DNA of 64,000 nt from Synaphobranchus kaupii (lineage: Eukaryota > Chordata > Actinopteri > Anguilliformes > Synaphobranchidae), in NCBI GenBank assembly GCA_029718625.1, contig CM056376.1:28488424-28552423 (forward strand), given 5' to 3'. Shown in pieces: positions 1 to 60,747 of this stretch. Made by a program: the position numbers and the translations under genes. Within the stretch, counting starts at the first letter, position 1, and each line of letters opens with the position of its first letter. The notes below the pieces were generated by a model that saw only the letters and a list, made by a program, of their open reading frames with translations, searched no databases and was not told the DNA's origin.

Positions 1-115
1 TCACCATCATCACCATCTTCATAATAATCATCGCCATCATTGCCATTTTGTTATCACTAGCATCGCCATCATGGTTATCGCCACCACCACAAAACCTTCT
101 GATTCCTGAATTTCA

Positions 116-257
116 GTGTGTTTGTGTCTGTGTATGCGTGCGTGTGTGAATGCATGTGTTTGTGTGAGTGCGTGTGTTTGTGTATGTGTGCGTGTGTGTG
201 AGTGCGTGTGTGTGTGTGTGTGTGTGTGTGAGCGCTTGTGATTGTGTATGTGTGCGT

Positions 258-318
<61 letters not shown>

Positions 319-536
319 TGCGTGTGTTTGTGTATGTGTGCGTGTGTGTGTGTGTGTGTGAGTGCGTGTGTTTGTGTATGTGTGCGTGTGTGTGTGTGTG
401 TGTGTGTAGAATGTGTGTGCGCGACACACACTCACTTGGACACCAGAGAGAAGGGCTCGTGCAGATGTGTGTGTGTGTAGAATGTGTGTGCGAGACACAC
501 ACTCACTTGGACACCAGGGAGAAGGGCTCGGTGCAG

Positions 537-577
<41 letters not shown>

Positions 578-633
578 ATGTGTGTGTGAGACACACACTC
601 ACTTGGACACCAGGGAGAAGGGCTCGGTGCAGA

Positions 634-673
<40 letters not shown>

Positions 674-675
674 AC
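116..675. repeat. TG microsatellite with three copies of a PITPNM2 exon edge
   Basis: Long TG tracts (116-412, 541-575, 634-668) separate blocks at 431-471, 502-538 and 598-634. Each block copies the last 35 or so exon bases and the donor of the exon at 680-924. The true copy is at 675-715. On the minus strand each block reads like exon end plus GTGAGT. Confidence 0.9.
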
Positions 676-679
676 TCAC

Positions 680-924
680 TTGGACACCAGGGAGAAGGGC
701 TCTGTGCAGATGGCGGGGCAGGGTACCAGGCGGATGGCGATGCGGCCCAGCGCGGTGGGGTAGTGCACACGCATCACTGTCTCAAACGCCGTGCTGATGG
801 TGTTCACATCAGCCTGCTTACTGCTCTGGTCCCCGCATCCCGTGTCCAGGATGTTCCCCCCGTGCAGAATCAGGATGAGGACGTGGATCTTAGAGGGCTG
901 CAAGGCCTGCTGGGTAGAGCCGTC
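680..924 (-). CDS. pitpnm2: PITPNM2 exon: start of pre-DDHD conserved region
   Basis: Encodes [60 protein letters not shown] and [15 protein letters not shown], plus two bases of the next codon. The acceptor follows a C-rich tract and the donor is CCAA|gtgagt. The HGG.ILDTG and [10 protein letters not shown] blocks are diagnostic for PITPNM. The last 35 or so bases of this exon and its donor are copied three more times at 431-640. Confidence 0.94.
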
Positions 925-3900
925 CTGTAGGGGAGGGGGGGAAGGGAAGTCACGACGCTTCATTTTACAGTCCAGTCAGCTCTGCTCGGCTTTCTCAAAC
1001 ACATTCGCACGAACAGCCAGGGCCCGTAATCCTGTCACTGCTGCTGAAACATGCCTTTGGACCGAACACAACTTTCACAGCTCAATTCAGGCTCGCCGTG
1101 AGACAAGAGGAGTGCCATTGCTCATTGAGCAATAAAGCAATTTAACGGCCTCTCCAACATTAGATTCATCACTACGACACAGGAGTAAGAAGGGCTGACC
1201 GTTTCAATTTTAACTGCTGATTACATATATTTGCTTATACCACCACATCATTCTCGTATGAAGGTGCTGCTTCTTAAATTCTTCCCAAAATACCCGAGGG
1301 CAAGGATGTGGGTCTGGAGAGGGGGAAAAGGCTGGGAAGTGTTCCCATTACAGTCAGCCTTGCACCTCCACTCTTGATAAGACTGTAATGTACAGCAGAC
1401 CGGAGGCCAAACAACCATTTGACACATTTTAATAACTCTTTAATCGCCAGTAAAATCCCTGCAGATTACAGCAGAGACTGTGACAAACACCTGCAGGCAA
1501 TTAACATAAAAACATAATTAAAAGAGCATGTTATTCAGCCATTGTACGCCTCGTCATTTACCTCCAAGCAAATTTAAAAATCAATATTCATACCAAACCT
1601 TTTCTTTCATATGGACTGTACATTGTACGGTGACATGTTTCATTGGAAATTCTCTGGGGTTATACAGGAGTGTTTTTCAAACATTACTGCCATTCAAAAA
1701 GTGTCTCAGAACAGCATATCTGACCCAGGTCTGGTGAGTAGGGTTTGGTAAAGTGAGGGACGGGCTAGTCTAATCCATATTATAAACACTGGTAATGATC
1801 ACACTCAACGAACCATACAGCGCCAAGGGGGGTGGGGTGTGGGGGGTTGCCAAAACAACACACAGAATGTTATGGGTGTTGACACAAGCACCCATTCTGG
1901 CGGTAACAAAAACTGCCTAAACACATCTCCACGGCACCACACATGAAGTCAACACATTCAATTTACCTTCTTGGCGGATGCCCACATCCACAGTGATTTA
2001 CGCCGCTTATATTCTCCTCCTATATTATCCACTACAGCTGGATATTTACTCATGCACTTTTAGGCAAAGGCACAGCAGCTCTCACCATCTGGGATTTGAA
2101 CCTGCAACCTCAGAGTTGCAAAGCCCAGTATAGCACACTGTTACAAACCTAGTCCCTTACACCCAGTTCCACTCTGTTGACTCTGAATATTGCATAGTGT
2201 GCCCTCTGTAACTAACAACATATGGAGAAAAGGGCATTAAAATATACTGCTCCTACAAACCATTACCGCCAATGGGAAGGACTCCAAAACTGGCTCCATA
2301 ACATATTTATCAAGCTTCCTGTTAAATTGGCAAGCGTCTGACAGCATTCAGTTGGCCACTGATTGAGCATAATTACCACGCATCAGCAGGAAGGTGTGTG
2401 AGCAGTGACCATACTGTCTGTGTTCCACCTCAATATGTCCTTGGTTCTTTAATCCGTCAACACGTCTGTCTAATTTGTATTTCACCCATGTTAAATAACC
2501 TTAAAGCGCGCATGAGGAGCGACAGTCCTTTTGGCCAGCCTGTTTTACTAAACCATATCTAACACTTCCAGCAATCTACAGCAACCACAGAACCCATTTA
2601 CAAACAAATCATACACTGTCAAGCAGATTACACAAATACTGTATTACAAACTGAAACACACACAGGTACACACACACACACACACACAATGTGCAGTTTC
2701 CAAGTGACTGCACATTTTCACAGGTTACAGGGCTCTACAGTGGAACTATGGGATGGCTCACACTTAGGGACACTAATGGGTTAGTACTGGGTCTAGGGAG
2801 GAGGGGGGGGGGGGGGTCTCTATTGCGGCTCCGGCCCACGATGCACTTGGGCCGTGTGTTTACTTACTGCCGAGGGGCTGGTTACCATGACGCAGGGAAT
2901 GGCGGCGCTACCGGCGGGGCAGCTAGCGTAGCCGCTCATCTGAACACAGAAGGACAGACAGGCTGTGGGAGGAGCCTCCACACCTCTGCACCTATCCCTA
3001 CACACCTGGGCCCCACCCTCTGCCCCACCCTCCTGCCACCACCCCCCCCCAAAAAAATACCACCTCCTCAGTTTGGCTTTGTGAAAGCAGAATCAGGGTG
3101 CTGTTCCAGTGTTGTAGCGACTGGATGCCGTTCTAAGTGTACTTCCTCTGAAACAGGAAGTTACTGAGTGCACACGCCATTCTGACCATCGCAATCCTGA
3201 CCGTGCTTACTGTGAGACAAACCAATGAAATCACCGTATCGGCGGCTGCAGCTTTCTATTTATATCTCAGTTCACGTCTCACGCACTTTCGCCAATACGA
3301 ATAACTTTTCAGCACAATATAACAATCGGGAGGCCTGGTATATTTAGGATTTTATCAGTAAGATTTTTTTTCAAATGTTGGATTTTTATCAAACTTGACA
3401 CATAACGACTATTAACAAAAAATGTACTCCATGCAAGCCTGCTTAGAGGCCCATATTGGCGCTAATAAACCCGTGTTGGCCCTTTAACGGAGGTACATAC
3501 CTCCTGAAGACTCTCCCCGCTCTCAGCCACTGCGTACTCTCCAGCCGATTCCTGGTACAGCTCTCCTGAAAACACAAACAGAAGGTTCCGTCCTATTCCA
3601 TCCTGCTCGGAACATTCAGGAGGTTTCCCTGCCCACTGGAACTATGAGTCGGAACCCATTGGTGTGTCACTACAGGTGTTGGGGTGGGTCGTGAGGTACC
3701 TTCCATTGATACTCACACCAGTCAAATTAAACACTGCACTTGCTGTGCCTGTGAACCTTATTCTTAGTTTCCATGTTTGAGAACATAGAACCTTAGGATA
3801 AATAATGACAAGAACAGGCCATTCAGCCCATGTAGGCTCGTCATTTATTTTATCGGGGGGGGGTTTCATTTCCCTTCCTTTTTTAATTTTTAAAATTAAC

Positions 3901-5734
3901 ATGCAACATTCAAGACATCACAATAAATTACACCGCATACAAAAATTCACACAACAGAAAGGAAATCACAAGACATTGAAAATGAAGGAGAAACATGCGT
4001 TCCCGGGTTGTTGGGCGGGCAAATGTTCAGGTTTTGTTTTCTCTCTCTTCCTTGGGATGGAGGGGGGTGGACTAGATGATCAGTTCTTTCCAATGGTCCA
4101 CCCCCCATTTCTCTCTCGCCAGACGCTTGTCCTTTACAAAATCCACCATAACACCGTCCTGGCTCATCATTTACTTACAGATTAGAGAGTATCCAGCACT
4201 GCTCAAGCCTGGACTCGATCAACCCAGAAAGTACCTCTACTGCATGACCTGGCAAGCAGTTCCACGCACGGTCTACTCTCTGTGTAAAAAAATACTTCCT
4301 GAAATTAGTTTTAAAGCAGGTTTCAAGTGCCTGTCCAAAACACACCTTGGGCCTCTTCTGTGTCCGCTGCCTCGATCTTATCCATCAGGTCGTTGGAGCT
4401 CCATTTGGTGATCTCCTTGGGAAAGACCTCCTCGTTATCAGAGAGATCCTCTGTTAGGGGGAGAAGAGGGAGAGAGAACCAGACCTGTCACTCACTAGCG
4501 AGGGGGGCGGGGCTTCTGCTTAAGCTCCTGCCATTGCGAAAGGATGTCATTTTGCATTTCAGTGTTTTTGTGTGATGGTCGTGTACCTGAAAGCTCTCCT
4601 AAATCTAATCTAATTCCTCGGCCACACCTTACAAATCACAACACTCAAGGTTGCAGCTGGAGATAATATATCTGTGCCAGCCCAAGGTCAAGCTGTTTTT
4701 TTCATGATTGGTTTTACTGCTGCCCTGATTACGAGAAAGATAGGGGGCCAAGACCAGGTTCAGGACTTCAGAATCCTCTGTTGTTGTGACCCCTCCAAGG
4801 GGCGGTTCTGAGATCCACCAATCCCTGCGCTGCTACCCAGAAAACAGCAGGTCTAACGGCCAGCTCAGGAATTTATAGGCCCCCAGCCCTGAACCTGTAG
4901 TTACAGGTAGGAAGTCCACCTTGGTTTGCTCAGCTTCACATAAAATCAAATCAATCGATCTTCTGTACAGTGCCATGTACAAACAGGCTGTCATTCCGTC
5001 CTTCATAAGGGACATTTTTCAGAGGGAATTTTAAAAAAAACGGAAAAAAGCACCAATTTCTGGAAAAACCAACCTCCCTGAACCCTTAAAAGGTGTTCCA
5101 TCTGAGGAACTGGAAATGGGGGGGGGGGGGGGGGGGGTTTGAAAAGATTACTGGCTCCGCAGTACAATGTTCTTTTACCAGCAGTTTTGGAAAATAGGGA
5201 CAGCCTTTTCAGCCTTACACGAAAGAGCCCTCAGTGCCAAGATCAATCACATAATTAGATGTGAGGAGGGGCCAAAAATAGGGACTGCCCTCTGTCATGA
5301 TTGACAGAAAACATTAGCAAAGACCTTCTAGAGCACAGCTGAAAAGCACTGAGCACTTCAGCCGCAGAAGAGTACCCTTCAGAACAGAGACGGTATGGTA
5401 AGCATAGTCCCCACACAAAACGTTTCCAGAAAGTTAGATTCCCATCTGTGATAACGTTGTGATGAGAACGTTACCAAAACTATTTCGTCCAAAACATTTA
5501 GTGGTTCCAAGCAAGTTCAGTGAAATTCACAGAAAGATGCTCCACACATGATTCATATAAATCTTCTGCCAGCATCCCGATGGTTATTATTGTGCCATGA
5601 ATAATCATCATCGAGAATGTGTGAAAACGAACATATTTAAATAGCGCAGTTAACGTTTAACATTGCCAACATTCCTGTTAAAATGAAAGCCAATGACCCT
5701 CCACAGTCCAATTTCTTTTCTAAGCACAACAAAA

Positions 5735-5813
<79 letters not shown>

Positions 5814-8800
5814 CCGTTTCTGTTTTCTTAAAGGGAAAAGCTCAGGGGACACACAGGAATCTGGAAAAATGGACAGGCCTGGAACTTTTCTAAGAGACAA
5901 AAATTGTTAGCGGGGGTCAGTAGGTGGCTGTCTCCTATCCAGCTGTGTTGATGTAATGGACTTGGGTTTGAGCCAGGAGGACCGGATGACACTGGTCCAA
6001 CACCAGTGCTTGTTTTCCTGTGCTTTCCGTGGTCCGGGACATTACTGGACCACAACGGCTACCACACAGGATGGCTGCCATAGTCTGTGGATTTTTACCC
6101 CTGATGCGAATTGAGAGGTGCATACGCTTCTGATTACGCATCTGCTTGTATACCGTTTGTGTAATTCTCTGGCTGAGTAAGAACATATAAGAGGTGTTTA
6201 ACCCTTTAAGGTGTAAGAGCAAAAATATGTCCAATGCTGACGTAACAATCACTAATGGAGTTCTAGAACACTGACTTTCCAAAAAAACCTACTCTTCAAA
6301 TCACTATTCACCGTTACACTCCATTTTATGCTACCCCTGGTACTGTGTTATAGATGTCAATTTTTTTTTTACCCACATGCGCCTTTTATTTTTCTTATAT
6401 ACACAATAAAATGTTGTGAGTCTAGTGAAAGCTGAGATTAATTAGATATAAGGAGATGGTATAAGGAGAAGCAGCTGACAAGCATGAAACATCGTTTATT
6501 TGTATAAAAGAAGACAAGCTGTAAAACTGGCTGTGAACTACTAAAAAAAAAAAAAAAAACTTAATATTTTAAAGGCTTAAACATTTCACACAAACCACAG
6601 ATTTTCCACCATCTACTTTATGTGATGGCAAAATATGTACAGGAAGAGTGAAGTTATTGGATAATTTAAAATAATGTTGTGATATGAAGTGTGAAAATAT
6701 GACATTTTTTAAAAATAAATGATTTCAGTCACTGGACTGTTTCTGTCTCATCACACACCAGCGCCCCCTCTGGACGATTATACACCCACAGTCTGCTTGC
6801 ACAAGCTACACATGAAGTGCCCTCCTCATCACTGTCTGTTGAACTCAATTGGTGAACTATTGGCTGTAATGAGGTCACAGCTAACATCACATCTGATTTG
6901 ACAGAGGGGGGGATTGCAGCATTGAGCTCAAACGCACAAACCAGGCAGAAAGCAGAGGCAATAGAAGGGCTACAACATGGCAGGACCCCGAGCGAGGCGG
7001 CGGCGTTACCGTGCGCGTCGAAGAACTCCTCGTCCGTGCTGTCCTCCGAGTCGCGGGCGATACTCTGCATCCTCCATTCTGAGATACTATGGCGGGAGGG
7101 GCTTCCTGGAACAGCCACACATGAGAGGCTACGATGAACTGTCAATCACTGACTTCTCTCGACCAATTAAAACACTTTGCTCTCTACAGCAGAACTCACT
7201 GATTGGTTCAAATCCGGGAGTCGCAGGTAACACAGAGTAGTTCCGCCTACTTTTTGATTATTCATTCTTCCATCATTTAACTACAGTGTGACTATGTTGA
7301 CGCCACGCCCACACTTCTTCCCAAAGAGATGCAAGCACAGATTCTTCAAACCAACCAGATGCTCAACTCCTCCATTTTAAACATTCAAAGCTGTGCCTCT
7401 GTACTGCTGAAGCCAAAACATTCCAATCTCATGTCCCTCCTGAATATTTACTAAGGGGGCATGGCTAAATGACAATAGTGTGGGCAGTGGATGTTCTGCA
7501 CTGTAAAATAACACCAGAATCTCCTGTTACCCACTGGAGCCTCCAGTATATTTAAGAAGCAGAGAGGACGGAAGTAACTCAGGAGCTGAGTATCCAGTGA
7601 GTCTATCAGCTCAGCTCAATCAGAGACACAGCAAGAGGCTTCATCTAAAAAAGAAAACCCTGGAAAAGCTTGTCCCTTCTAAGAGACTGGAAAATAAAAT
7701 GAAACACCACACAGGGTCAACATCCGCAGGTCCTCAAAGGCAGCCAAGGACAGCAAAATAAAACTAAAAGTTAAAAGGGACAGACACTTTTATAACACCC
7801 TGCAAATTACTGCGACAGTGTTTAAAACACATGCCTCCATGGAGGAGATAAATCAGTCCTCTTAACTCCTCTTAACTCCTGTGATTAAGAAATTATCTAC
7901 AGTTGGACACGTGTAAAGGCACCAGACTTGGGCCAGACCTATATTTTAAAACTTTAGATTCCAGTAAAATTAGAAAATTCTCCTCTGCAGATCCCTAAGG
8001 ATTGTAAACAAAGCATGGTGACTAACCGAAAAGTATAATCACGTGAATGTAAGCATTCAGTTCTGCACATTGTTGAAAATGGACTTTAACTGTTTTCTAA
8101 AGGGTTAAAGCACTTTCAAATAATTATTATTTGACCCAGATCTGACAGCCAAATAGGGCACAAAATACCCAAGTGAAAAAAAGTGTGGTGGTTTGTTTTT
8201 CTCCCGCCTCTGCCAAAAAAAAGGACCCCTCACTAGTCCCCTGCTGGCAGCAGGAGAGGGTGAGATTTCACACCCCACCCCCTCGGCCCGCCACCTCACT
8301 GCTAAAGTGGGAGATGGGAAGTAGGCCATAGGCCCGGCCGTGTACAGCAGTCTCCTACAGCAACACTGCTCAGGGTGGAGAGAGGAACAGAAGGAGGGGG
8401 GAGGGAGCAAATGAGAGAGGGAGGGAAAGAGAGAGGGAGGGAAGGTGAGAAGGAGGAACAGAGAAGGAGGGGAGAGGAAAAAAGGAGGGAAAGAGAGGGA
8501 GGGAGGGGTGCTCATACTTCATGAGAGACAGGTTCACAGCTGTGTCTCTGGCCCGGGGGGGCTGGTTCTCCCTTACCCCTGTGACATCAGAGCTGTTTCT
8601 AAAAATAGTGTGTGTGTGCGTATGTGTGCTGTCCACATGCGTGTACATGTGTGTGGTGTATGCGTTTGTGTGTGTGTATGTGTGCGTGTGTGTGTGCTTG
8701 CAGCTTGCCATCTGTCTGACAGGCGAGTGAGTGGCTTGGGGAAAAGCTGTCAATCAGCAGGTTTTAATCAGAATGAATGAACACTCTGTTCTTAATGTAT

Positions 8801-9168
8801 GACCCTGGGCCTAGAGGTCATTCACAGAGCACTGCTGAACCCTGCCGTGCCTGGAGTATGGAGTATCCCACAATCCCGTTCTACACACACTGCTGCCCAG
8901 TCAACAATATAACATCCGCACAATATACGACAAGCATCTCTATACACACACACACACACACCTACACACACAGTATAAATATACTATACTATATCAAATC
9001 CTCCTCTACAGTCCTACACCAATACACACACACATAAAAAGTAACATGGTGTACATCACAAAATCCAGTATAAGCAGTACAGTATAAACACACATCTACA
9101 CACACACACACACACACACACAAAGCGTTACATGGTGTAACAATATATCAAATCCTCATCTACAGTCC

Positions 9169-9206
<38 letters not shown>

Positions 9207-9267
9207 GCGTTACATGGTCTACATCACAAACTCCAGTGTAAGCAGTACAGTATAAACAGACACCTAC

Positions 9268-9364
<97 letters not shown>

Positions 9365-12300
9365 GAGTAACATGGTCTACATCACAAACTCCCTATTTAC
9401 AGTATAAACACACACAAAGGCCTGTTTACATTTCAAACCTCCTTTATCAACACTGAGACAAAGAAACACACCCCACCCTGACTGCTACAGCACAGAGCAG
9501 AGCGGGTAAAGCAGGGGTGCTGTGGGTTCTAACCCGGTAAGGACTGAGACAGCACAGCCGGGACTTACCGCCTCTCTTGGACGAGCGCGAAGACCTGGAG
9601 GACGTGGACCACTGCTTGGTGAGGACGCCGCGAGCCTGCAGCGAGTCCGCTGCTCCACCGGGGGGCGCCTCCTCCGCCTCGATGGAGCTGATGGCCTCCT
9701 TCACTTCCTGGTCCTTGTCCGGGGTGGTGGGGGCGGCGCCGTTGGGCTCGCCCCCCTCCTCTGCGCAGCTGAACTGCGCCATTTTCTGCGCCAGCATCAG
9801 CTGTGTCTCCAGCTCCAGCTGCCGAATGTCCTCCATGGTGAGCCCGTACCACTCGTCCTGCCAACACCAGGCCTGTCTGTGCGCTCGGACCATCACCTTC
9901 CGCAGCCCTGGGGGGGAGCAGGGAGGTGTTAAACACTACCTGTGCGCTCGGACCATCACCTTCCGCAGCCCTGGGGGGGAGCAGGGAGGTGTTAAACACT
10001 ACCTGTGCGCTCGGACCATCACCTTCCGCATCCCTGGGGGGGAGCAGGGAGGTGTTAAACACTACCTGTGCGCTCGGACCATCACCTTCCGCATCCCTGG
10101 GGGGGAGCAGGGAGGTGTTAAACACTACCTGTGCGCTCGGACCATCACCTTCCGCATCCCTGGGGGGGAGCAGGGAGGTGTTAAACACTACCTGTGCGCT
10201 CGGACCATCACCTTCCGCATCCCTGGGGGGGAGCAGGGAGGTGTTAAACACTACCTGTGCGCTCGGACCATCACCTTCCGCATCCCTGGGGGGGGAGCAG
10301 GGAGGTGTTAAACACTACCTGTGCGCTCGGACCATCACCTTCCGCATCCCTGGGGGGGAGCAGGGAGGTGTTAAACACTACCTGTGCGCTCGGACCATCA
10401 CCTTCCGCATCCCTGGGGGGGAGCAGGGAGGTGTTAAACACTACCTGTGTGCTCGGACCATCACCTTCCGCATCCCTGGGGGGGAGCAGGGAGGTGTTAA
10501 ACACTACCTGTGCGCTCGGACCATTACCAGTCTGGAAGTTGTTTAAGTGCATTCTAAACGTAAGTAAGGCACTGTCCACCCGGTACCTGTACCTGTGCCA
10601 AAAAGAGCCCCCTCTTCTACTCACCACTGTCAAAAACTAGATGAACATACAGCATGTCCCAAACAGAACACAGCAGAACATCGCCTGCATGCTGAGGCAG
10701 CGCTGGGGCTTTGGGTCAGCTCCATTTAAATAAAGAGTCCATTTAGAAAATTAACTGCAATTGCCAAAAAAAAGTTGCAAACTTTCCAATTACCAAATTG
10801 AATTTCTATTAATTTCCTGTTTTGGATGAAATGAAAGGGCATTGACCCCCCCCCCCCGCCCCCACCACCCGCCTCCCCCCTGCCAAAACGCCCCCACCCC
10901 CCCTGATTAAGACAGGGTAGTCCCTGTGTCTCTGGCAGGATGTCTGGGCCCAGTGCTGGGGAGGGGGGGGTGCGGGGGTGGAGAGAGGACCAGCATTTGA
11001 ACCCTGAGAGGGGGGGGAGGGTCAGCACCCCCCCAAACACTGGTAGGCTAAATGCCACTCCAGCCCGGGAAGCCCGGGGAGCACAGAGGAAGAGGACGAG
11101 GAAGAGGGCCTCGCTCTGTCATTAGCCTTGACAGCTGATTCGTGGGGCCGGCACAGCCATGACACTAATGGCCGACTGGGGCCAGAGGCCTAAGATTACT
11201 TCTGACTGCTGCTCCACCGACCACACCCCCTTCCCCCTGCCCAATCACCCCCCAAACACCTCCACCCCCTCCCCTCCAGAGCCGTTAGATTTCAGAGGAG
11301 CAAACCCGTGGAGCCTCAGGGCATGGGAAGGTTGTAACAGAGCAGTTGCAGGTTTGATTCCCGGGGGGGGGGGGGGGGGGGGGGGGGCAGTGCCATTGTA
11401 ACCTTGAGCAAAGGTGAATGACCTGAATTGCTTCTCTAAGGACTGCTGGGTAGAAACAGCAGGCTTTGTAAGTCAGAATGGACAAGAGCATCTGTTAAAT
11501 GTTTAAAATGTAAATTGTAAAATCAACGCGCCAAGCAGCGCAGATTCTCAGAGGCTGGAAATGCCTCAGCTGCTAAACAAATAAACAAAAAAGAAATCAG
11601 AATCAGAGCCCATTAACTAACACTCTGTCATCACATTCAAATTTACTAGATTGTTACACTGGAAAAATGAAGTGGTGTCAAGTGGGGCAAACTGGACTGC
11701 AAAAAAAAATCTGTGAGTAAACAGCAACTCTCCTGCTTACCCCCAAAAAATGAAAGCGGTATTAACGGGATTTCATTTCGAGTGGGTTAATGACTACGGA
11801 AATGAAGGGGGCTTTTTTTGGGTGGCTCCGCCCAGTTCTTTCTCGCACCCCCCCCCCCCCACCCCCATCCGCTAGAACACCTGCTATTCGCCCACACAGA
11901 GGAAGGGGGGGGGGGGGGGGTGCAGGGTGCTAGTCGCCCCAGCCCATAACCACACAGCAGTTCATCCGCGAGCAAACCCCCGAAGCGTGTTATTAGTGTC
12001 AGCCTGCGTTTATGTAAGCGCTCCAAAAACGGACTTCTCTGGCGCATCGATCCTGACGTTCAGAGGTGGGAGGTGGGCGGGGGAGCGATCGGGCACCGTG
12101 AGCGGGCGTGCTGAGGAGAAGCCAGGGACGGATTTAGAACCCGCAGCGTTCTCCGAAGTTTGGAAAGAAAAACTGAGAAAGCCTGCCCAATTCACTGAGC
12201 ATGACTAACGCTGAGTTTGCACTGAGTTTGAAACATCACTAACTCTGAGTTCTCCTTGCTGTAGTCTGCACTGTTAAAGTGTCAAAAGGCAAGAGAACAC

Positions 12301-12821
12301 CTTACAGCTCACCTTCTCTGAGGCCCCTTTGATATTATTGATATTATATATACACAAATCAAATGGCAGATGTTTATCTCATCTGGACAAATACTGAAGC
12401 GAGGCATTGGTCACTTCAATGGATCGGTCCTTCAGAACAACGCTAAAAGATGCACCAGACTCTGGAGATCCAGCAGAACCACCCTCTGACCTCTCCACTT
12501 CCTGTCTACAAAAGCAGTTCCTGTTGCTATGTCACAGCACATGTCCTTAACCAATGTCCATAACCACTGTAATGGTTGTGAATGTAACTGTAATTGTAAG
12601 TTGCTCTGGATAATGAAAATGTATTAATTTTCAGAAGATGCACAATACTGGAATATTTCTGCTTCAAAGGTTGGGGGGAGAAACTTTAAATGCAGGTGTA
12701 GAGCTGAGTAGCTGTGATGCTGCAGGGCCACTTACCGACACCGCTCCAGGGGTCACAAAGGTGTGTGTGTGTGTGTGTGCGCAAGTGCGAGTGTGCGTGT
12801 GTGTGTGTGTATACACGCGAA

Positions 12822-12853
<32 letters not shown>

Positions 12854-12910
12854 AGTGCGAGTGTTTGTGTGTGTGCGTGCGTGTGTGTGCGAATGTGTGT
12901 GTGTGCGCAG

Positions 12911-12955
<45 letters not shown>

Positions 12956-12990
12956 TGTGCGCGAGTGCGAGTGTTTGTGTGTGTGCGTGC

Positions 12991-13029
<39 letters not shown>

Positions 13030-13200
13030 TGTGCGCGAGTGCGAGTGTTTGTGTGTGTGCGTGCGTATGTGTGTGTGTGTGTGTGTGTGTGTGCGAATGT
13101 GTGTGTGTGCGCAGGTGCGTGTGTGTGTGTGTGTGCGCGCGCAAATGTGTGTGTGTGTATGTGTGTGTGCGCGAGTGCGAGTGTTTGTGTGTGTGCGTGC

Positions 13201-13247
<47 letters not shown>

Positions 13248-13340
13248 AATGTGTGTGTGTGTGTGTGTGTGCGCGAGTGCGAGTGTTTGTGTGTGTGCGT
13301 GCGTATGTGTGTGTGTGTGCGAATGTGTGTGTGTGCGCAG

Positions 13341-13377
<37 letters not shown>

Positions 13378-13378
13378 A

Positions 13379-13420
<42 letters not shown>

Positions 13421-15688
13421 AATAGATGAGGACTAAAAATTACCAAAGCGTGTTGAACAGGCAAGCGGATGCCAATTTCACACGTCTCCCTTCACCATGG
13501 CAACAGCCGGCTGCAGGTGCGCTGGCAGTGCCATCTCTGTAGGGATCCGTAATGGAGCATCTAACTGATATTAACAGCGCCTTACTGATTGGTGGACGGT
13601 AATTGACAGAGTGCCCCTAAATAAATTAGCAGGTTAATTTGCTTGTGAAGGTTACCCCCCCTCGCCCCTTCCCTCGCTGCCACCCCCATCTTTCAATCTG
13701 CTTGTCACTGCGCCCCCTGCACCCCCCCACCCCGTCCCGGGTCTTCTGAGTTCAGGGTGTATCGAACGGAACCGATCCGTTTCCATGCAGATCACTAATG
13801 ATAACGTAAGCTCCTTCTGTGGCTCTGTACCTCAACACCCGTGTGCCTGAACAGCTGTGTTCAGTCCAAACTGAACTACTCTTAACTCTAATGGAGTACA
13901 TATTACCTCTAGTGGACGTAAAAAAAATAAACACTGTTAGACGTGGTTTACACTGTTAGTATTGATTTAACGCAAGAAATTTCAGACTCCAAAATCCTGA
14001 CTCTTCTTCCCATAATGCCCTTTGTTCATCTTGACCATGTAACGCCTACATCAGGGAGCAGTTACACCTGTGTACACGCCTACAGCATGGCGCAGGTACG
14101 CACCTACGTCGTGGATGAAGCGCTCGATCTTTGACTGCATGCCCCAGTAGCGGAACTCCACCTTGCACAGCTTGTAGGCGCACATGATGGGCTCCTTTGT
14201 GGGGTCGCTGTCAAACTCCTCGATCCAGTCGTCCGTCAGGGGACCCCGCTGGGTCTTCAGCGACTTGTACAGCCGGGGGTCCTCTTCCGCTTTGTACTCG
14301 TGTGGCGGGATGGGGTCCTTCACGATGTCGATTGGGTCTAGGCCAATGAAAAAGGACGGGTTGTTAGACACGGCCTGCCGACGGAAAGATCTTCTCTAAT
14401 GCAAGTAATATGCCAGGCCTGGGTCAAATAATGCTTTCAAAAGCTTTAACCCTGGAGACATACCCATGATGGCTTTGCTAATCACTCAGTAATTTGAAAA
14501 TAAATATCTTTACTCAAAAATATCTTCTTTCAAAATTCTTCTTTCATGTCAATGTATGTGATTTTTTTCCACATTTTCGTTGAAAATTCTCAAGGATTCT
14601 GAAGGAGTGTTTACAAATTTTACCAGAATCGTTTTTCTACCCCCCAAGTATTTAAACTACATATTTGACCCAAATTTTTTAAGGGTCCATTAGACGCATT
14701 TCTTATCAGCGCTACAGTCAGAGACGGCCGTTTGGCCCCAACAAGATGGCCGTGATAAAGACACTTTGATGGAGCATCCATACCTAGGCTCCGCTGTCTC
14801 CTCTCCACAGCGGACATGTTGAAGACGTCCACCTGGTTCCCCGTGTCGGGCTTGTAGTACGTTTCAATGTCGATGGAGAACTTTTCCACAAAGGGGCACG
14901 TGTACCTGCAAAGATCCAAAATGTCCTTAAAACTACTGAGTCTATGAGGGGGGGCGGTGCCGGGAGTAGAGGTGAAGCCCAGCCCCCCAAAATAACACAC
15001 CTTTACTCACCCTACAGTACTAAATATACACACAGGCATGCACCGGCCACACAATACCAGTATATAAAATCCTATTAACTGCTTGATTAACCTATGACAG
15101 GGATTGGCAACTCCAGGCCTCGAGGGCCGGTGTGTATGCAGGTTTTTGCTGCCACCAGTTACCCTGCCTCAATCAGCTAATTAGTCATATACACCAACAC
15201 TGATTCACTCGTAAATTAGACCACAATAAAACGCTACAATACATGCATACAGGCACAAGAATCCACATCAGCTGCAGTTTATATCGTGGAATGTAGCTAA
15301 ATGATCAGATCATATAAATGTAGACTGGGCTAATTAAATAATTAAGAGCAGAAGTTAGTCTGAAAGCCAGAATTGGATGCAGCCCTCCTTGCCCATCCCT
15401 GACCTAAAAAAGGATGGTGAGGACCAGTCAGAATGACCCCAGGTCACTAGGGGGCGGTGTTGCAGGTTCTCACCGTGTGCGGGTATAGGGATACGCGTTC
15501 CATGACTCTTCCTCCACGCGTAGGGCGGCCTTGGGGAGGATGGAGCGGAACCAGCTGGGGATGTGCATGCCGATGTGGTACACCTTGTGCGTGTACTGGC
15601 CCGATCCGCCGGGCCCGTCCGTATACGGCCGGTTCTCCAGGATCTCCACACCGCTGCCCTCCCCGCACGTCTCCTCGCGGCTCTTCTT
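680..15688 (-). CDS. pitpnm2: PITPNM2-like (Nir3) membrane-associated phosphatidylinositol transfer protein, partial, nine exons
   Basis: Exons in transcript order are 15474-15688, 14784-14905, 14104-14337, 9569-9907, 7010-7105, 4346-4450, 3501-3565, 2868-2939 and 680-924 (1493 nt, about 497 codons). All have GT-AG borders and compatible phases. The protein shows PITP-domain blocks such as [20 protein letters not shown] and [20 protein letters not shown], then LTKQWSTSS, a FFAT motif (EFFDAHE) and the pre-DDHD block [16 protein letters not shown]. Family knowledge: these proteins exchange phosphatidylinositol and phosphatidic acid at ER-plasma membrane contacts, tethered to VAP through FFAT. 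The C-terminal DDHD and LNS2 domains lie left of the window and the start-codon exon was not located. PITPNM2 is preferred over PITPNM1/3 because MPHOSPH9 is the neighbour, as in human. A paralogue from the teleost genome duplication cannot be excluded. Confidence 0.88.
925..2867 (-). other. PITPNM2 intron
   Basis: No coding exon seen. Contains a reverse-oriented SINE-like remnant at about 2030-2160 (tRNA-like box GGGATTTGAACCTGCAACC on the plus strand), a CA tract at 2668-2688 and a G-run at 2803-2816. Confidence 0.6.
2868..2939 (-). CDS. pitpnm2: PITPNM2 probable exon: 24-codon variable linker
   Basis: Encodes [20 protein letters not shown], then SPSA. It is 72 nt, phase 0 on both sides, so it could be included or skipped without a frameshift. 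The acceptor is tgtgttcag|ATGAGC and the donor GGCA|gtaagt is strong. I do not recognise the peptide; the call rests on splice sites, phase and position. An alternative donor lies six codons earlier (CATG|gtaacc). Confidence 0.6.
3501..3565 (-). CDS. pitpnm2: PITPNM2 exon: short linker exon
   Basis: Encodes [20 protein letters not shown] then QE. It starts with two bases that complete a Gly codon and ends in phase 0. The acceptor is gttttcag|GAGAGC and the donor GGAG|gtatgt. The LYQ..AGEYAV pattern resembles the linker segment that precedes the DDHD region in PITPNM1/2. Confidence 0.82.
3780..4325. mobile_element. Dispersed teleost SINE-like repeat
   Basis: Starts with ATAATGACAAGAACAGGCCA and TTCAGCCCATGTAGGCTCGT and ends in a block with CTCTGTGTAAAAAAATACTT. 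The same head module recurs at about 51808-51875. It resembles a repeat I know from many fish genomes. It lies in the intron immediately downstream of the exon at 4346-4450 on the minus strand. Confidence 0.5.
4346..4450 (-). CDS. pitpnm2: PITPNM2 exon: post-FFAT linker
   Basis: Encodes [20 protein letters not shown], then [15 protein letters not shown]. The [10 protein letters not shown] block is conserved in PITPNM proteins. The acceptor is ctaacag|AGGATC and the donor CAAG|gtgtgt. The first residue, Glu, completes the FFAT core. Confidence 0.92.
4451..7009 (-). other. PITPNM2 intron
   Basis: No exon seen. Holds a G-run at 5119-5138, an AAT microsatellite at about 5740-5811, an A-run near 6543-6560 and otherwise unremarkable AT-rich sequence. 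Confidence 0.55.
5740..5811. repeat. (AAT)n microsatellite
   Basis: About 23 uninterrupted AAT units. Confidence 0.97.
7010..7105 (-). CDS. pitpnm2: PITPNM2 exon: FFAT motif exon
   Basis: Encodes [20 protein letters not shown] and [12 protein letters not shown], with one base carried into the next exon. Together with that exon it forms EFFDAHE preceded by an acidic tract, a canonical FFAT motif that in this family binds VAP-A/B on the ER. The acceptor is gttccag|GAAGC and the donor CACG|gtaacg. Confidence 0.93.
8395..8512. repeat. GA-rich polypurine tract
   Basis: Plus-strand purine-rich stretch of GAGGGA/GAAGGA units. On the transcribed minus strand it reads as a polypyrimidine tract inside the PITPNM2 intron. 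Confidence 0.9.
8940..9415. repeat. Compound CA microsatellite with a repeated spacer
   Basis: Four CA tracts, the longest about 9268-9362, alternate with diverged copies of a roughly 50-60 bp spacer containing CATGGTCTACATCACAAACT and GTAAGCAGTACAGTATAAAC. CA tracts and spacer have duplicated together. Confidence 0.9.
9569..9907 (-). CDS. pitpnm2: PITPNM2 exon: end of PITP domain and acidic linker
   Basis: Starts [20 protein letters not shown], runs through [37 protein letters not shown] and [14 protein letters not shown], and ends [18 protein letters not shown]. The acceptor is the lowest-coordinate member of ten near-identical C7-AG copies; the next one lies 63 bp upstream. The donor GGCG|gtaagt is strong. 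The serine-rich tail is typical of the PITPNM linker. Confidence 0.94.
9877..10528. repeat. 63-bp minisatellite made of a PITPNM2 splice acceptor and exon start
   Basis: Units start at 9877, 9940, 10003, 10066, 10129, 10192, 10255, 10319, 10382 and 10445, with a partial copy at 10508. One unit is 64 bp because of an extra G. The first unit is the real exon start (9877-9907) plus its acceptor; the other nine lie upstream in the intron. On the minus strand each unit carries C7, AG, 31 bp of exon sequence, then CAG|gtagtg. The units are almost identical. From the third unit on, CTG in the exon part becomes ATG. Confidence 0.97.
10529..12755 (-). other. PITPNM2 intron with homopolymer runs and a SINE remnant
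   Basis: No exon seen. Poly-C at 10848-10860 and poly-G at 11360-11387 and 11906-11920. A plus-oriented SINE fragment at about 11335-11515 has GGTTTGATTCCCGG then CCTTGAGCAAAGGTGAATGA, and an expanded poly-G lies inside it. Confidence 0.55.
12760..13418. repeat. Compound TG/CG repeat with a recurring module
   Basis: TG tracts alternate with GCGCGAGTGCGAGTGTTTGT, seen at about 12849, 12959, 13032, 13169 and 13270. Alternating purine-pyrimidine sequence is a candidate for Z-DNA. It lies in the intron between the PITPNM2 exons at 14104 and 9907. Confidence 0.95.
14104..14337 (-). CDS. pitpnm2: PITPNM2 exon: PITP domain, EYKAEEDP to IERFIHDVG
   Basis: Encodes [34 protein letters not shown] and [20 protein letters not shown] followed by RFIHDVG. 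The acceptor is ttggcctag|AC and the donor GTAG|gtgcgt. The WxxE and [10 protein letters not shown] blocks are PITP-family signatures. The intron after this exon (9908-14103) contains the acceptor-copy minisatellite and a long compound TG repeat. Confidence 0.94.
14784..14905 (-). CDS. pitpnm2: PITPNM2 exon: PITP domain, TCPFVEKF segment
   Basis: Encodes [20 protein letters not shown], then [20 protein letters not shown]. The acceptor is tttgcag|GTACAC and the donor CTAG|gtatgg. Entry uses one base to complete Arg and exit leaves one base. The segment matches the core of the lipid-binding PITP fold. Confidence 0.93.
15098..15401. mobile_element. Short non-autonomous DNA element
   Basis: Begins CAGGGATTGGCAACTCCAGG and ends CCTTGCCCATCCCTG, giving imperfect terminal inverted repeats. 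AT-rich inside, no ORF. It fills most of the intron between the PITPNM2 exons at 15474 and 14905. Confidence 0.6.
15474..15688 (-). CDS. pitpnm2: PITPNM2 exon: N-terminal PITP domain (after the start exon)
   Basis: Encodes [20 protein letters not shown], continues through [20 protein letters not shown] and ends [13 protein letters not shown] plus two bases of an Arg codon. The 3' splice site is preceded by ccccgtgcag and the donor is CG|gtgaga. It starts in phase 0, so the missing upstream exon should end after a complete codon; in the family this follows the first roughly 26 residues. This is one of the most conserved parts of the PITP fold. Confidence 0.93.
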
Positions 15689-17374
15689 CTGCACGGGGGA
15701 GAGAAGGTCAAAGGTCATTGTGTCTCCCCCCCGGTGACTCACGTATCATTTTTGGATTGGAAGTCCTGTCTGGAGAAGAGCACAGCCCCCCCTGGCCCTA
15801 CTGAACAAAAAAAAATGTCACATAAAATGGACATATATACAGTGCAGTCCAAAATGGGACTATGTATTAAAATTGCTATACAACTGCTACACGGTTCACC
15901 CAATATGGATGTAAACACCCTCGAATTAAAGCTGAAAGTCTGCACTTTAACCTCATAGTCACTGTTCCATTTCAAATACAATGTGCTGGAGTACAGAGCC
16001 AAACCAACAAAAAATGTGTCATTGTCCAAATACTTTTTGACTGCACTGTATGTCTAATCAAGCAAAAGGTGCATTATTATTCATTAAAACCGCAGTGCCC
16101 CACCTGGCAATGAAACCTGCATCACCTGAGTCACAAACCATTACACTGCACTGCTACCTGGGCTGTCATCTGCTGGCACAGGTCACCCAGGAAACAGAAG
16201 AATTAAGCCAATCAGCGCAGAGGGCCCCGCCCCCTCAGGATTCCCATTCCAATGACGTTTGCTGTTGATCTCTGCCACAGAGAAGGGGAGTGGTCGCCGT
16301 GCCAACCTGGGTTTTTACGATGTGGTGAATTTATCTAACTGAGCCGCTTGCATTTCCTGTCTGTTACTGATAAGGGCTGCAAGGAGACAGGAAGTGGGCG
16401 GAGAGACAAAGTTACGATGGGGCCGAAGTGCAGCATCAGAACACCTCTACACTCCTAGAATCCTCCTCTTCCTCCTTGCGGTCTGCCGCCCGATAGAGGT
16501 TCCATTTATCGGCTCTCTTCTCCGCGAGAAACCTGACAAACCCGACTGCGGCTACAACAAACGACACAATCCACACGCTGATTACCGCTACGCACCTCAG
16601 AGGCCTGTTAAGGTTCCAGTGAACTTAGGGGATAGTCTTTATGAACCAGAGCAAACATTTAACCCCTTAGATTCCCTGTAGAACACGGACAGTTTTAACA
16701 TCTCGGTCTGTCCACAGACACACACACACCTGTTATTTGTTCTGTTAGTCACAGAGCAGCTAGACAACCTTTGAAAATAAACAACTTCTGCTAATATCAA
16801 ACTTAAAATTCTGAACATATGATTGTACATCGTTTTTCATTGAATATGTTTCATTGAATATTCTGCAGAGATTCTACTGGAGTATTTTCAAATTTTATCA
16901 GCATCTAAGTTCTTAAAATATTTCAAATACATATGTCACACATTTGACCAGGTCTGTGATGAACATAAGAATCGTACATGACTAAACTTTGTGCCTGATA
17001 CACTCTAATCCCCCAATATGGGGAGCCAGAACCCAGCCAGCAAGCAGGGATTAAAGACAGGGGTTCCACTCAAGGCCCTGGTTGGTGCATCCGGGCACAA
17101 TCTGGCAACACCTACATCTACAGTGCTGAAACAATTAAGACTCCATGCTACTTGGGGTTAGCTAATGATTAGCCAGCCCAGTCTTACTGGGGAGTCCAAA
17201 GCCTGGTCGAAAGAGCTTGCAGCGAGTCAAGGAGCTTGGAAGCCGATGGCCATCCATGAGTAAACCCTGAGTGCCCATGTGAGCCAATCACTGCCCTCTC
17301 ATAGACTCTAAAGCTAAGCACACACCCATCTCAGCCATCTCTTACTTTGCCTTAACTGCTATGCCATACAATGC

Positions 17375-18834: not shown

Positions 18835-19138
18835 GCATTTCAGCGCCTCTCTCTGCTCCTCCCAACTTCATCTCAGCGTCTCTCTCAGCTCCTCCCAACT
18901 GCATTTCAGCACCTCTGTCTGCCCCTCCCAACTATATCTCAGCGCCTCTCTCAGCTCCTCCCAACTGCATTTCAGCGCCTCTCTCTGCTCCTCCCAACTA
19001 CATTACAGAGCCTCTCTGCTCCTCCCAACTGCATTTCAGAGCCTCCCTGCTCCTCCAAACTGCATCTCTGCGCCTCTCTCAGCTCCTCCCAACTGCATCA
19101 CAGAGCCTCTCTCTGCACCTCCCAACTGCATCTCAGCG
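18835..19138. repeat. Minisatellite of about 34-36 bp running into the gap
   Basis: Repeats of TTTCAGCGCCTCTCTC followed by AGCTCCTCCCAACTGCA, in eight or nine diverged units. Pyrimidine rich on the plus strand. The true length is hidden by the adjacent gap. Confidence 0.9.
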
Positions 19139-19638
19139 NNNNNNNNNNNNNNNNNNNNNNNNNNNNNNNNNNNNNNNNNNNNNNNNNNNNNNNNNNNNNN
19201 NNNNNNNNNNNNNNNNNNNNNNNNNNNNNNNNNNNNNNNNNNNNNNNNNNNNNNNNNNNNNNNNNNNNNNNNNNNNNNNNNNNNNNNNNNNNNNNNNNNN
19301 NNNNNNNNNNNNNNNNNNNNNNNNNNNNNNNNNNNNNNNNNNNNNNNNNNNNNNNNNNNNNNNNNNNNNNNNNNNNNNNNNNNNNNNNNNNNNNNNNNNN
19401 NNNNNNNNNNNNNNNNNNNNNNNNNNNNNNNNNNNNNNNNNNNNNNNNNNNNNNNNNNNNNNNNNNNNNNNNNNNNNNNNNNNNNNNNNNNNNNNNNNNN
19501 NNNNNNNNNNNNNNNNNNNNNNNNNNNNNNNNNNNNNNNNNNNNNNNNNNNNNNNNNNNNNNNNNNNNNNNNNNNNNNNNNNNNNNNNNNNNNNNNNNNN
19601 NNNNNNNNNNNNNNNNNNNNNNNNNNNNNNNNNNNNNN
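19139..19638. other. Assembly gap of exactly 500 N
   Basis: A round-number run of N, the usual placeholder for a gap of unknown size. It directly follows a tandem repeat of about 34-36 bp (18835-19138), which probably caused the assembly break. Confidence 0.99.

Positions 19639-31718: not shown

Positions 31719-60747
<29,029 letters not shown>

What the first reader, a model, noticed from the sequence alone, without database searches (positions are those of the whole stretch)
9877..10528. A splice acceptor and exon start amplified ten-fold in a 63-bp minisatellite
On the transcribed strand every unit contains a C7 tract, AG, the first 31 bases of a PITPNM2 exon and then CAG|gtagtg. The spliceosome would meet nine decoy acceptors before the true one at 9907/9908, each also offering a 31-nt micro-exon. 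Entry at a decoy gives ten exon-frame codons and then TAG; inclusion of one 31-nt cassette shifts the frame. Both outcomes would truncate the protein inside its PITP domain. The units are nearly identical, which suggests recent or ongoing expansion. If copy number varies, this VNTR could tune productive splicing of a lipid-transfer gene.
Basis: partly seen in the sequence, partly recalled or inferred. Interest (0 to 1): 0.75.

Follow-up and report, generated by a model that had tools for sequence, protein, structure and literature searches.

The report
Splice-acceptor minisatellite in a fish gene
In a fish lipid-transfer gene the junction where an intron ends and an exon begins has been copied ten times in a row, giving nine look-alike splice sites before the real one; such "mirage" repeats are known from lancelets, where they seem harmless, so this looks like a good natural test of how splicing picks the right copy rather than a proven switch.

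Summary
On the minus strand, 9877-10528 holds ten 63-bp units (one is 64 bp) plus a truncated eleventh. Each unit is intron end (TTTAAC branch-point-like motif, C7-8, CAG) plus the first 31 nt of a PITPNM2 exon. Nine decoy acceptors precede the true one at 9907; ten CAG|GTAGTG donor-like sites accompany them. The nine in-window exons give one open frame of 488 codons. Decoy 1 matches the true site over 60 nt upstream and 31 nt of exon, so no short-range signal separates them.

The kind is described: "mirages" in amphioxus, where splicing is reported as regular. Human factor VII intron 7 and IFI6 are donor-side analogues. But a human BRCA1 duplication of the same geometry does yield mRNA with the extra copy. 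A second such array, of donors, lies at exon I (430-712). Two of seven repeats touching exon edges is not above chance.

Most likely this is a young, largely silent mirage: the acceptor nearest the exon body wins by exon definition, with some leak to NMD. Copy-number "tuning" is untested but open. The claim that micro-exon inclusion truncates inside the PITP domain is wrong in detail: that stop comes 150 codons later.

The parts
9569..9907 (-). True exon D of the PITPNM2-like gene (339 nt, length a multiple of 3); donor GCG|GTAAGT at 9568
   Evidence: it encodes the end of the PITP domain (Pfam PF02121 covers residues 1-226 of the in-window protein)
9877..9939 (-). True unit: 32 nt intron end (9908-9939; branch-point-like TTTAAC with A at -22, C7, CAG) plus first 31 nt of exon D (9877-9907)
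9940..10002 (-). Decoy 1, acceptor 9970; identical to the true unit (exon +3 = C)
10003..10065 (-). Decoy 2, acceptor 10033; exon +3 C>A
10066..10128 (-). Decoy 3, acceptor 10096; exon +3 C>A
10129..10191 (-). Decoy 4, acceptor 10159; exon +3 C>A
10192..10254 (-). Decoy 5, acceptor 10222; exon +3 C>A
10255..10318 (-). Decoy 6, acceptor 10285; 64 bp, C8 tract, exon +3 C>A, branch-point-like A at -23
10319..10381 (-). Decoy 7, acceptor 10349; exon +3 C>A
10382..10444 (-). Decoy 8, acceptor 10412; exon +3 C>A
10445..10507 (-). Decoy 9, acceptor 10475; exon +3 C>A and exon +26 G>A
10508..10528 (-). Truncated eleventh unit: about 20 nt of exon sequence ending in a CAG|GTAGTG site (GT at 10507), without a unit acceptor
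14104..14337 (-). Upstream exon C (donor TAG|GTGCGT at 14103); intron C-D is 4196 nt to the true acceptor
430..712 (-). Second splice-edge array: end of exon I with AA|GTGAGT donor, true donor at 679 and three decoy donors at 602, 506 and 435 inside CA-repeat DNA

Best explanation
It is a 'mirage'-type minisatellite: a recent tandem amplification of a 63-bp segment that straddles the 3' splice site of exon D in a PITPNM2 gene of a teleost fish. Shown from sequence: every decoy keeps branch-point-like motif, pyrimidine tract and AG, and of the acceptors in the array only the copy joined to the exon body gives an open frame. Inferred: splicing mostly uses that copy, the last one transcribed, because exon definition pairs it with the strong GTAAGT donor of exon D, while 31-nt decoy exons and 32-nt decoy introns are too short and the decoy donors poor by consensus. 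Leakage to decoys 1-2 (exons of 402 and 465 nt) would carry a stop at least 367 nt before the exon end and go to NMD. The array is expected to be close to neutral and variable in length.
For: Anatomy and open 488-codon frame over nine exons. All nine extended exons stop at the 12th codon after the junction. The exon D donor has the best consensus score of nine true donors (9.64 bits) and the decoy donor the lowest of those ten sites (5.31; approximate recalled base frequencies). Exon +3 C>A is derived: of 185 related proteins with the upstream motif, 121 gave a captured junction stretch, 105 of these have Leu and 16 lack the stretch or differ; none of all 247 fetched proteins holds GMRK. Only decoy 1 shares C with the exon, so an A-type unit was amplified afterwards. 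Placement on exon edges is within chance: 2 of 7 minisatellites, P(2 or more) about 0.32. Precedents: amphioxus BflGb6 has the same 3'-boundary geometry with 6 and 3 units in two haplotypes, and its authors say the Adh3 data and their globin RT-PCR suggest no interference with regular splicing (PMC3087553 section 16); lancelet Adh, TnC and PGBD5 are reported likewise (PMC3902484 section 17).
Against: No transcript was seen. A human BRCA1 germline tandem duplication of 395 nt of intron 9 end plus 1617 nt of exon 10 start, the same geometry with one extra copy, gave cDNA with the whole duplicate including its intron part, and a stop 10 residues on (PMC11839443, abstract and passages): there the upstream acceptor is used, though that assay amplified only the altered allele and gave no proportions. 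Decoy 1 and the true acceptor are identical over 60 nt upstream and 31 nt of exon. Decoys score as high as the true site (6.0; decoy 6 scores 7.2) among 244 AGs of the intron. The decoy donor pairs with the U1 5' end as strongly as the best true donor if one U1 base bulges (-9.4 against -9.3 kcal/mol). In a 3' array the true site is transcribed last, so 'first come first served' works against it.
Confidence: 0.6

Rival explanations
1. A splicing rheostat: copy number sets the share of transcripts that enter at a decoy and are destroyed by NMD, so the VNTR tunes PITPNM2 output.
For: Each decoy is a complete 3' splice-site module, and all nine lead to the same early stop. Decoy 1 and the true site cannot be told apart locally. 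The array looks young. In the BRCA1 duplication the upstream acceptor is used (PMC11839443). In IFI6 repeat units serve as alternative donors (PMC4526556 passages).
Against: No RNA, expression or copy-number data. Amphioxus mirages and the F7 intron 7 repeats are reported to splice regularly. No sign of a selected RNA element: the true-site stretch folds less stably than shuffles (180 nt, z = +2.28), one unit is ordinary (z = -0.62) and there is no Rfam match.
Confidence: 0.2
2. Intron or exon birth in progress: the 31-nt piece with CAG|GTAGTG is being recruited as a new micro-exon, as proposed for amphioxus mirages.
For: Each decoy unit has an acceptor and a donor 31 nt apart. Skipping one unit gives a 95-nt intron, long enough to splice. 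The model is published for mirages (PMC3087553 section 16).
Against: One cassette shifts the frame, and two, three or four cassettes stop 25 codons after the junction. The decoy donor is weak by consensus.
Confidence: 0.07
3. Assembly artefact: the array or its copy number is a product of mis-assembly.
For: The assembly has a 500-N gap at 19139-19638. The amphioxus BflGb6 mirage appeared wrongly assembled in its draft genome (PMC3087553 supplementary legend).
Against: Units carry private variants in order (C at the true unit and decoy 1, C8 in decoy 6, G26A in decoy 9). The array is only 652 bp, and the same window holds an 8.9-kb 27-bp array, which suggests long reads (inference).
Confidence: 0.08

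Closest known systems
Amphioxus 'mirage' minisatellites (Adh3, TnC, globins BflGb6 and BflGb9, PGBD5)
   [quoted passage not shown]).
   Different: Here a vertebrate, ten units of 63 bp with near-perfect identity (BflGb6: 150-160 bp, 81-100%), and a 3' and a 5' array in one gene. Regular splicing and length instability, reported there, are untested here.
Human F7 intron 7 37-bp repeats
   Same: Highly homologous repeats bearing splice sites, only the productive copy used normally (PMC6627357 passages). The exon I array here (430-712) has the same donor-side geometry.
   Different: Donor, not acceptor: the true F7 site is the most upstream and is transcribed first; the true site here is transcribed last.
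Human BRCA1 partial exon 10 tandem duplication (intron 9 end plus exon 10 start)
   Same: Same 3'-boundary geometry: duplicated acceptor upstream of the true one, and use of it reads into an early stop (PMC11839443, abstract and passages).
   Different: One extra copy of 2012 bp with 1617 nt of exon, disease allele, and the duplicate is seen in mRNA. Here nine copies with 31 nt of exon each.
Human IFI6 (6-16) splice-donor minisatellite
   Same: A minisatellite providing several splice sites; downstream repeat units serve as alternative donors (PMC4526556 passages). The primary paper (Turri 1995) is not held; only its reference was seen.
   Different: Donor side, shorter unit (12 bp, recalled), and alternative use gives proteins.
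Human variable internal tandem repeats in segmental duplications
   Same: Minisatellite expansion in genes, in some cases at the exon-intron boundary, changing gene structure (PMC2812944 passages).
   Different: About half lie in coding sequence, and boundary cases are proposed to form new introns. Here the extra copies lie on the intron side and the exon is unchanged.

Membership tests
Mirage minisatellite | Tandem repeat whose unit spans an exon-intron boundary | tested here: met
   Intron end plus 31 nt of exon start in 10 of 10 units
Mirage minisatellite | Units carry AG/GT splice signals | tested here: met
   9 of 9 decoys keep CAG, the C7-8 tract and TTTAAC; ten CAG|GTAGTG sites
Mirage minisatellite | Does not disturb regular splicing | not testable with these tools
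   No RNA data at hand for this species
Mirage minisatellite | Length instability between haplotypes or cells | not testable with these tools
   One haplotype only; near-identity of units is indirect support
F7-type donor repeat | Repeat carries the 5' splice site, the true donor being the first copy | tested here: not met
   The 9877-10528 array repeats the acceptor and its true copy is last; the exon I array does meet it
PITPNM2 (membrane-associated PITP 2) | PITP domain | tested here: met
   PF02121 IP_trans, E 8.7e-97, 324 bits
PITPNM2 (membrane-associated PITP 2) | Closer to PITPNM2 than to PITPNM1 | tested here: met
   Over the first 240 residues: 93.3% to Paramormyrops PITPNM2, 92.9% and 91.7% to unnamed models of Synaphobranchus and Albula, 78.3% to each of two named PITPNM1 proteins (the only PITPNM1 rows I printed; names)
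PITPNM2 (membrane-associated PITP 2) | DDHD and LNS2 domains downstream | not tested
   The window ends soon after exon I

The most novel reading that the evidence does not exclude
A natural ten-rung acceptor ladder in a vertebrate gene acts as a copy-number rheostat: each added unit lowers productive splicing by a step through NMD, so PITPNM2 dose varies with VNTR length, and the ladder directly measures how far exon definition can override first-transcribed acceptors.
Probability: 0.15. Interest if true: 0.65.

Novelty: new member of a known kind. Interest (0 to 1): 0.42.

Why it matters
Ten near-identical 3' splice-site modules, of which only the last is productive, are a ready-made test of acceptor choice. 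If the last copy wins, proximity to the exon body and its donor must decide; if decoys are used, the array is a natural dose dial. It also suggests that exon-edge minisatellites, described in detail for lancelets, occur in fishes at both kinds of splice site in one gene, so a genome-wide count is worthwhile.

Tried and rejected
RNA structure as the selector of the true site: the true-site stretch folds less stably than shuffles (z +2.28) and one unit is ordinary (z -0.62); rejected. Known structured RNA: no Rfam match at gathering score in 9400-11000. Special targeting of exon edges: 2 of 7 minisatellites in 1-15700 touch an edge, P(2 or more) about 0.32 with random placement; the seven were merged by hand, leaving out mono- to hexanucleotide and CA/TG-rich tracts; rejected. 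Array copies in other species: the plus-strand array ORF found 15 proteins among the 7992 candidates scored, and none of the 15 holds the unit's words tested. A 30-base unit junction had 0 matches in viral contigs. Gene models of relatives with extra or missing residues at the C|D junction (such as P0137, P0172) were taken as gene-prediction errors, not as evidence of decoy use; this was not tested. Splice-site scores use base frequencies, and the U1 pairing a U1 5' end, recalled from memory; MaxEnt and SpliceAI were not run.

Papers: ten searches answered. Of the 15 papers I opened four; two concern splice-edge mirages, both lancelet, and in the other two the word means a transposon or stands in a reference title; the other 11 were seen as listings. 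One search found none. Of the three papers one was opened and mentions intronic SINE deletions only; two were seen as listings. I do not claim that no fish mirage is in print. On re-checking, the BRCA1 paper (first opened) proved to be a case against my reading; I added it and moved the odds of the silent reading from 0.66 to 0.60, of the rheostat from 0.15 to 0.20, and of the novel case from 0.12 to 0.15.

Full report
Gene and place. The minus strand of 680-15688 carries nine exons (A-I) that join into one open frame of 488 codons without a stop. Residues 1-226 match Pfam IP_trans (PF02121, E 8.7e-97), and five PITP alpha or beta chains of the PDB match at E 5e-61 to 3e-60. Over the first 240 residues it is 93.3% identical to Paramormyrops PITPNM2 and about 92% to gene models of Synaphobranchus and Albula, against 78.3% to each of two named PITPNM1 proteins. 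So it is PITPNM2 of a teleost, probably an early-branching one (inference). The first coding exon was not found in the window.

The array. Exon D (9907-9569, 339 nt) is preceded by a 63-bp minisatellite at 9877-10528. Ten units each hold 32 nt of intron end (33 in one, through a C8 tract) and 31 nt of exon start, and a truncated eleventh leaves about 20 nt of exon at the 5' edge. Ten of ten units have a TTTAAC branch-point-like motif, its A at -22 (at -23 in the C8 unit), a C7-8 tract and CAG. Ten CAG|GTAGTG sites follow the exon pieces. Variants are few: exon +3 is C in the true exon and decoy 1 and A in decoys 2-9; decoy 9 has one more substitution; decoy 6 has the extra C. The C (Leu) is ancestral: of 185 related proteins with the upstream motif, 64 gave no captured stretch, and of the other 121, 105 have Leu and 16 lack the stretch or differ; none of all 247 fetched proteins holds GMRK. 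These come from lists capped at the best 120. So an A-type unit arose and was then amplified. Mean difference among the nine decoys is 0.67 per unit, the extra C counted as one, which indicates recent turnover.

What splicing would see. Decoy 1 and the true acceptor are identical for 60 nt upstream and 31 nt downstream. Among 244 AGs of the 4196-nt intron, nine of the ten array sites score 6.0 and decoy 6 scores 7.2; two non-array sites, 11572 and 11569, score 7.45 and 6.39 (approximate recalled frequencies). Nothing close to the site can tell decoy 1 from the true one, so any choice must come from the exon body, its donor, or position.

Outcomes. Entry at any of nine decoys gives an exon of 402 to 907 nt whose TAG is the 12th codon after the junction, 367 to 872 nt before the exon end, an NMD substrate by known rules (recalled). 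One 31-nt cassette shifts the frame, with the stop in exon F, 150 codons after the junction. Two, three or four cassettes stop 25 codons after it; this holds with the decoy-3 and the decoy-1 type of copy. Skipping exon D is in frame and loses 113 residues. A unit-internal intron of 32 nt is too short for vertebrates (established knowledge), but skipping one unit makes it 95 nt. The decoy donor scores lowest by consensus (5.31 against 5.55-9.64 for nine true donors), yet pairs with U1 at -9.4 kcal/mol if one U1 base bulges, equal to the best true donor (-9.3). A 31-nt exon is therefore weak but not impossible.

A second array in the same gene. The end of exon I, with its AA|GTGAGT donor at 679, recurs three times downstream (donors at 602, 506 and 435) inside CA-repeat DNA. 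An exon extended to a downstream copy would read AAG TGA at once. Of the 18 edges of nine exons only these two have copies elsewhere in the window, apart from CA-repeat matches. In both arrays only the copy joined to the exon body is productive. With seven minisatellites in 1-15700, two or more on an edge is expected about one time in three, so no special targeting is needed.

What it is. The structure fits the 'mirage' minisatellites of amphioxus, described at Adh3, TnC, globin and PGBD5 genes (PMC3087553, abstract passage and section 16; PMC3902484, section 17). BflGb6 has the same 3'-boundary geometry, with 6 and 3 units in two haplotypes, and its authors report that the Adh3 data and their RT-PCR suggest regular splicing. 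Human F7 intron 7 and IFI6 are donor-side analogues (PMC6627357 and PMC4526556, passages only): in F7 only the first donor is used normally; in IFI6 downstream repeat units are used as alternative donors. Against silence stands a human BRCA1 tandem duplication of 395 nt of intron 9 plus 1617 nt of exon 10: cDNA held the whole duplicate with its intron part and an early stop (PMC11839443, abstract and passages). That assay was specific for the altered allele and gave no proportions, and the duplicated exon piece is far longer than 31 nt, so it shows that an upstream duplicated acceptor can be used, not how often. Silence is thus the reported outcome for mirages, but not for every duplicated splice site.

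Judgement. I take it as a young mirage minisatellite, mostly silent, with the acceptor nearest the exon body selected by exon definition and an NMD-bound leak that falls with distance. Shown: anatomy, open frame, coding consequences, derived variants, second array, chance-level placement. Inferred: which acceptor is used, NMD, and length variability. The window's own genome could not be searched, so whether such arrays are common in this species is unknown.

Noticed in passing
430-712: Second splice-edge repeat in the same gene: the end of exon I and its GTGAGT donor recur three times downstream inside CA repeats, making three decoy donors.
   Followed up: yes
36037-44893: Very long minisatellite: 27-bp unit, about 328 copies, 8.9 kb.
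   Followed up: no
19139-19638: Exactly 500 Ns (assembly gap) next to a 33-bp minisatellite (18835-19138). The first PITPNM2 coding exon, not found in the window, could lie there or outside the window.
   Followed up: partly
47826-53396: Minus-strand ORFs with coiled-coil-like sequence, perhaps MPHOSPH9, which neighbours PITPNM2 in human (recalled). The three of these ORFs that were scanned had no Pfam match.
   Followed up: partly
12761-13417: 657-bp CA-rich tract inside the same intron as the acceptor array.
   Followed up: no
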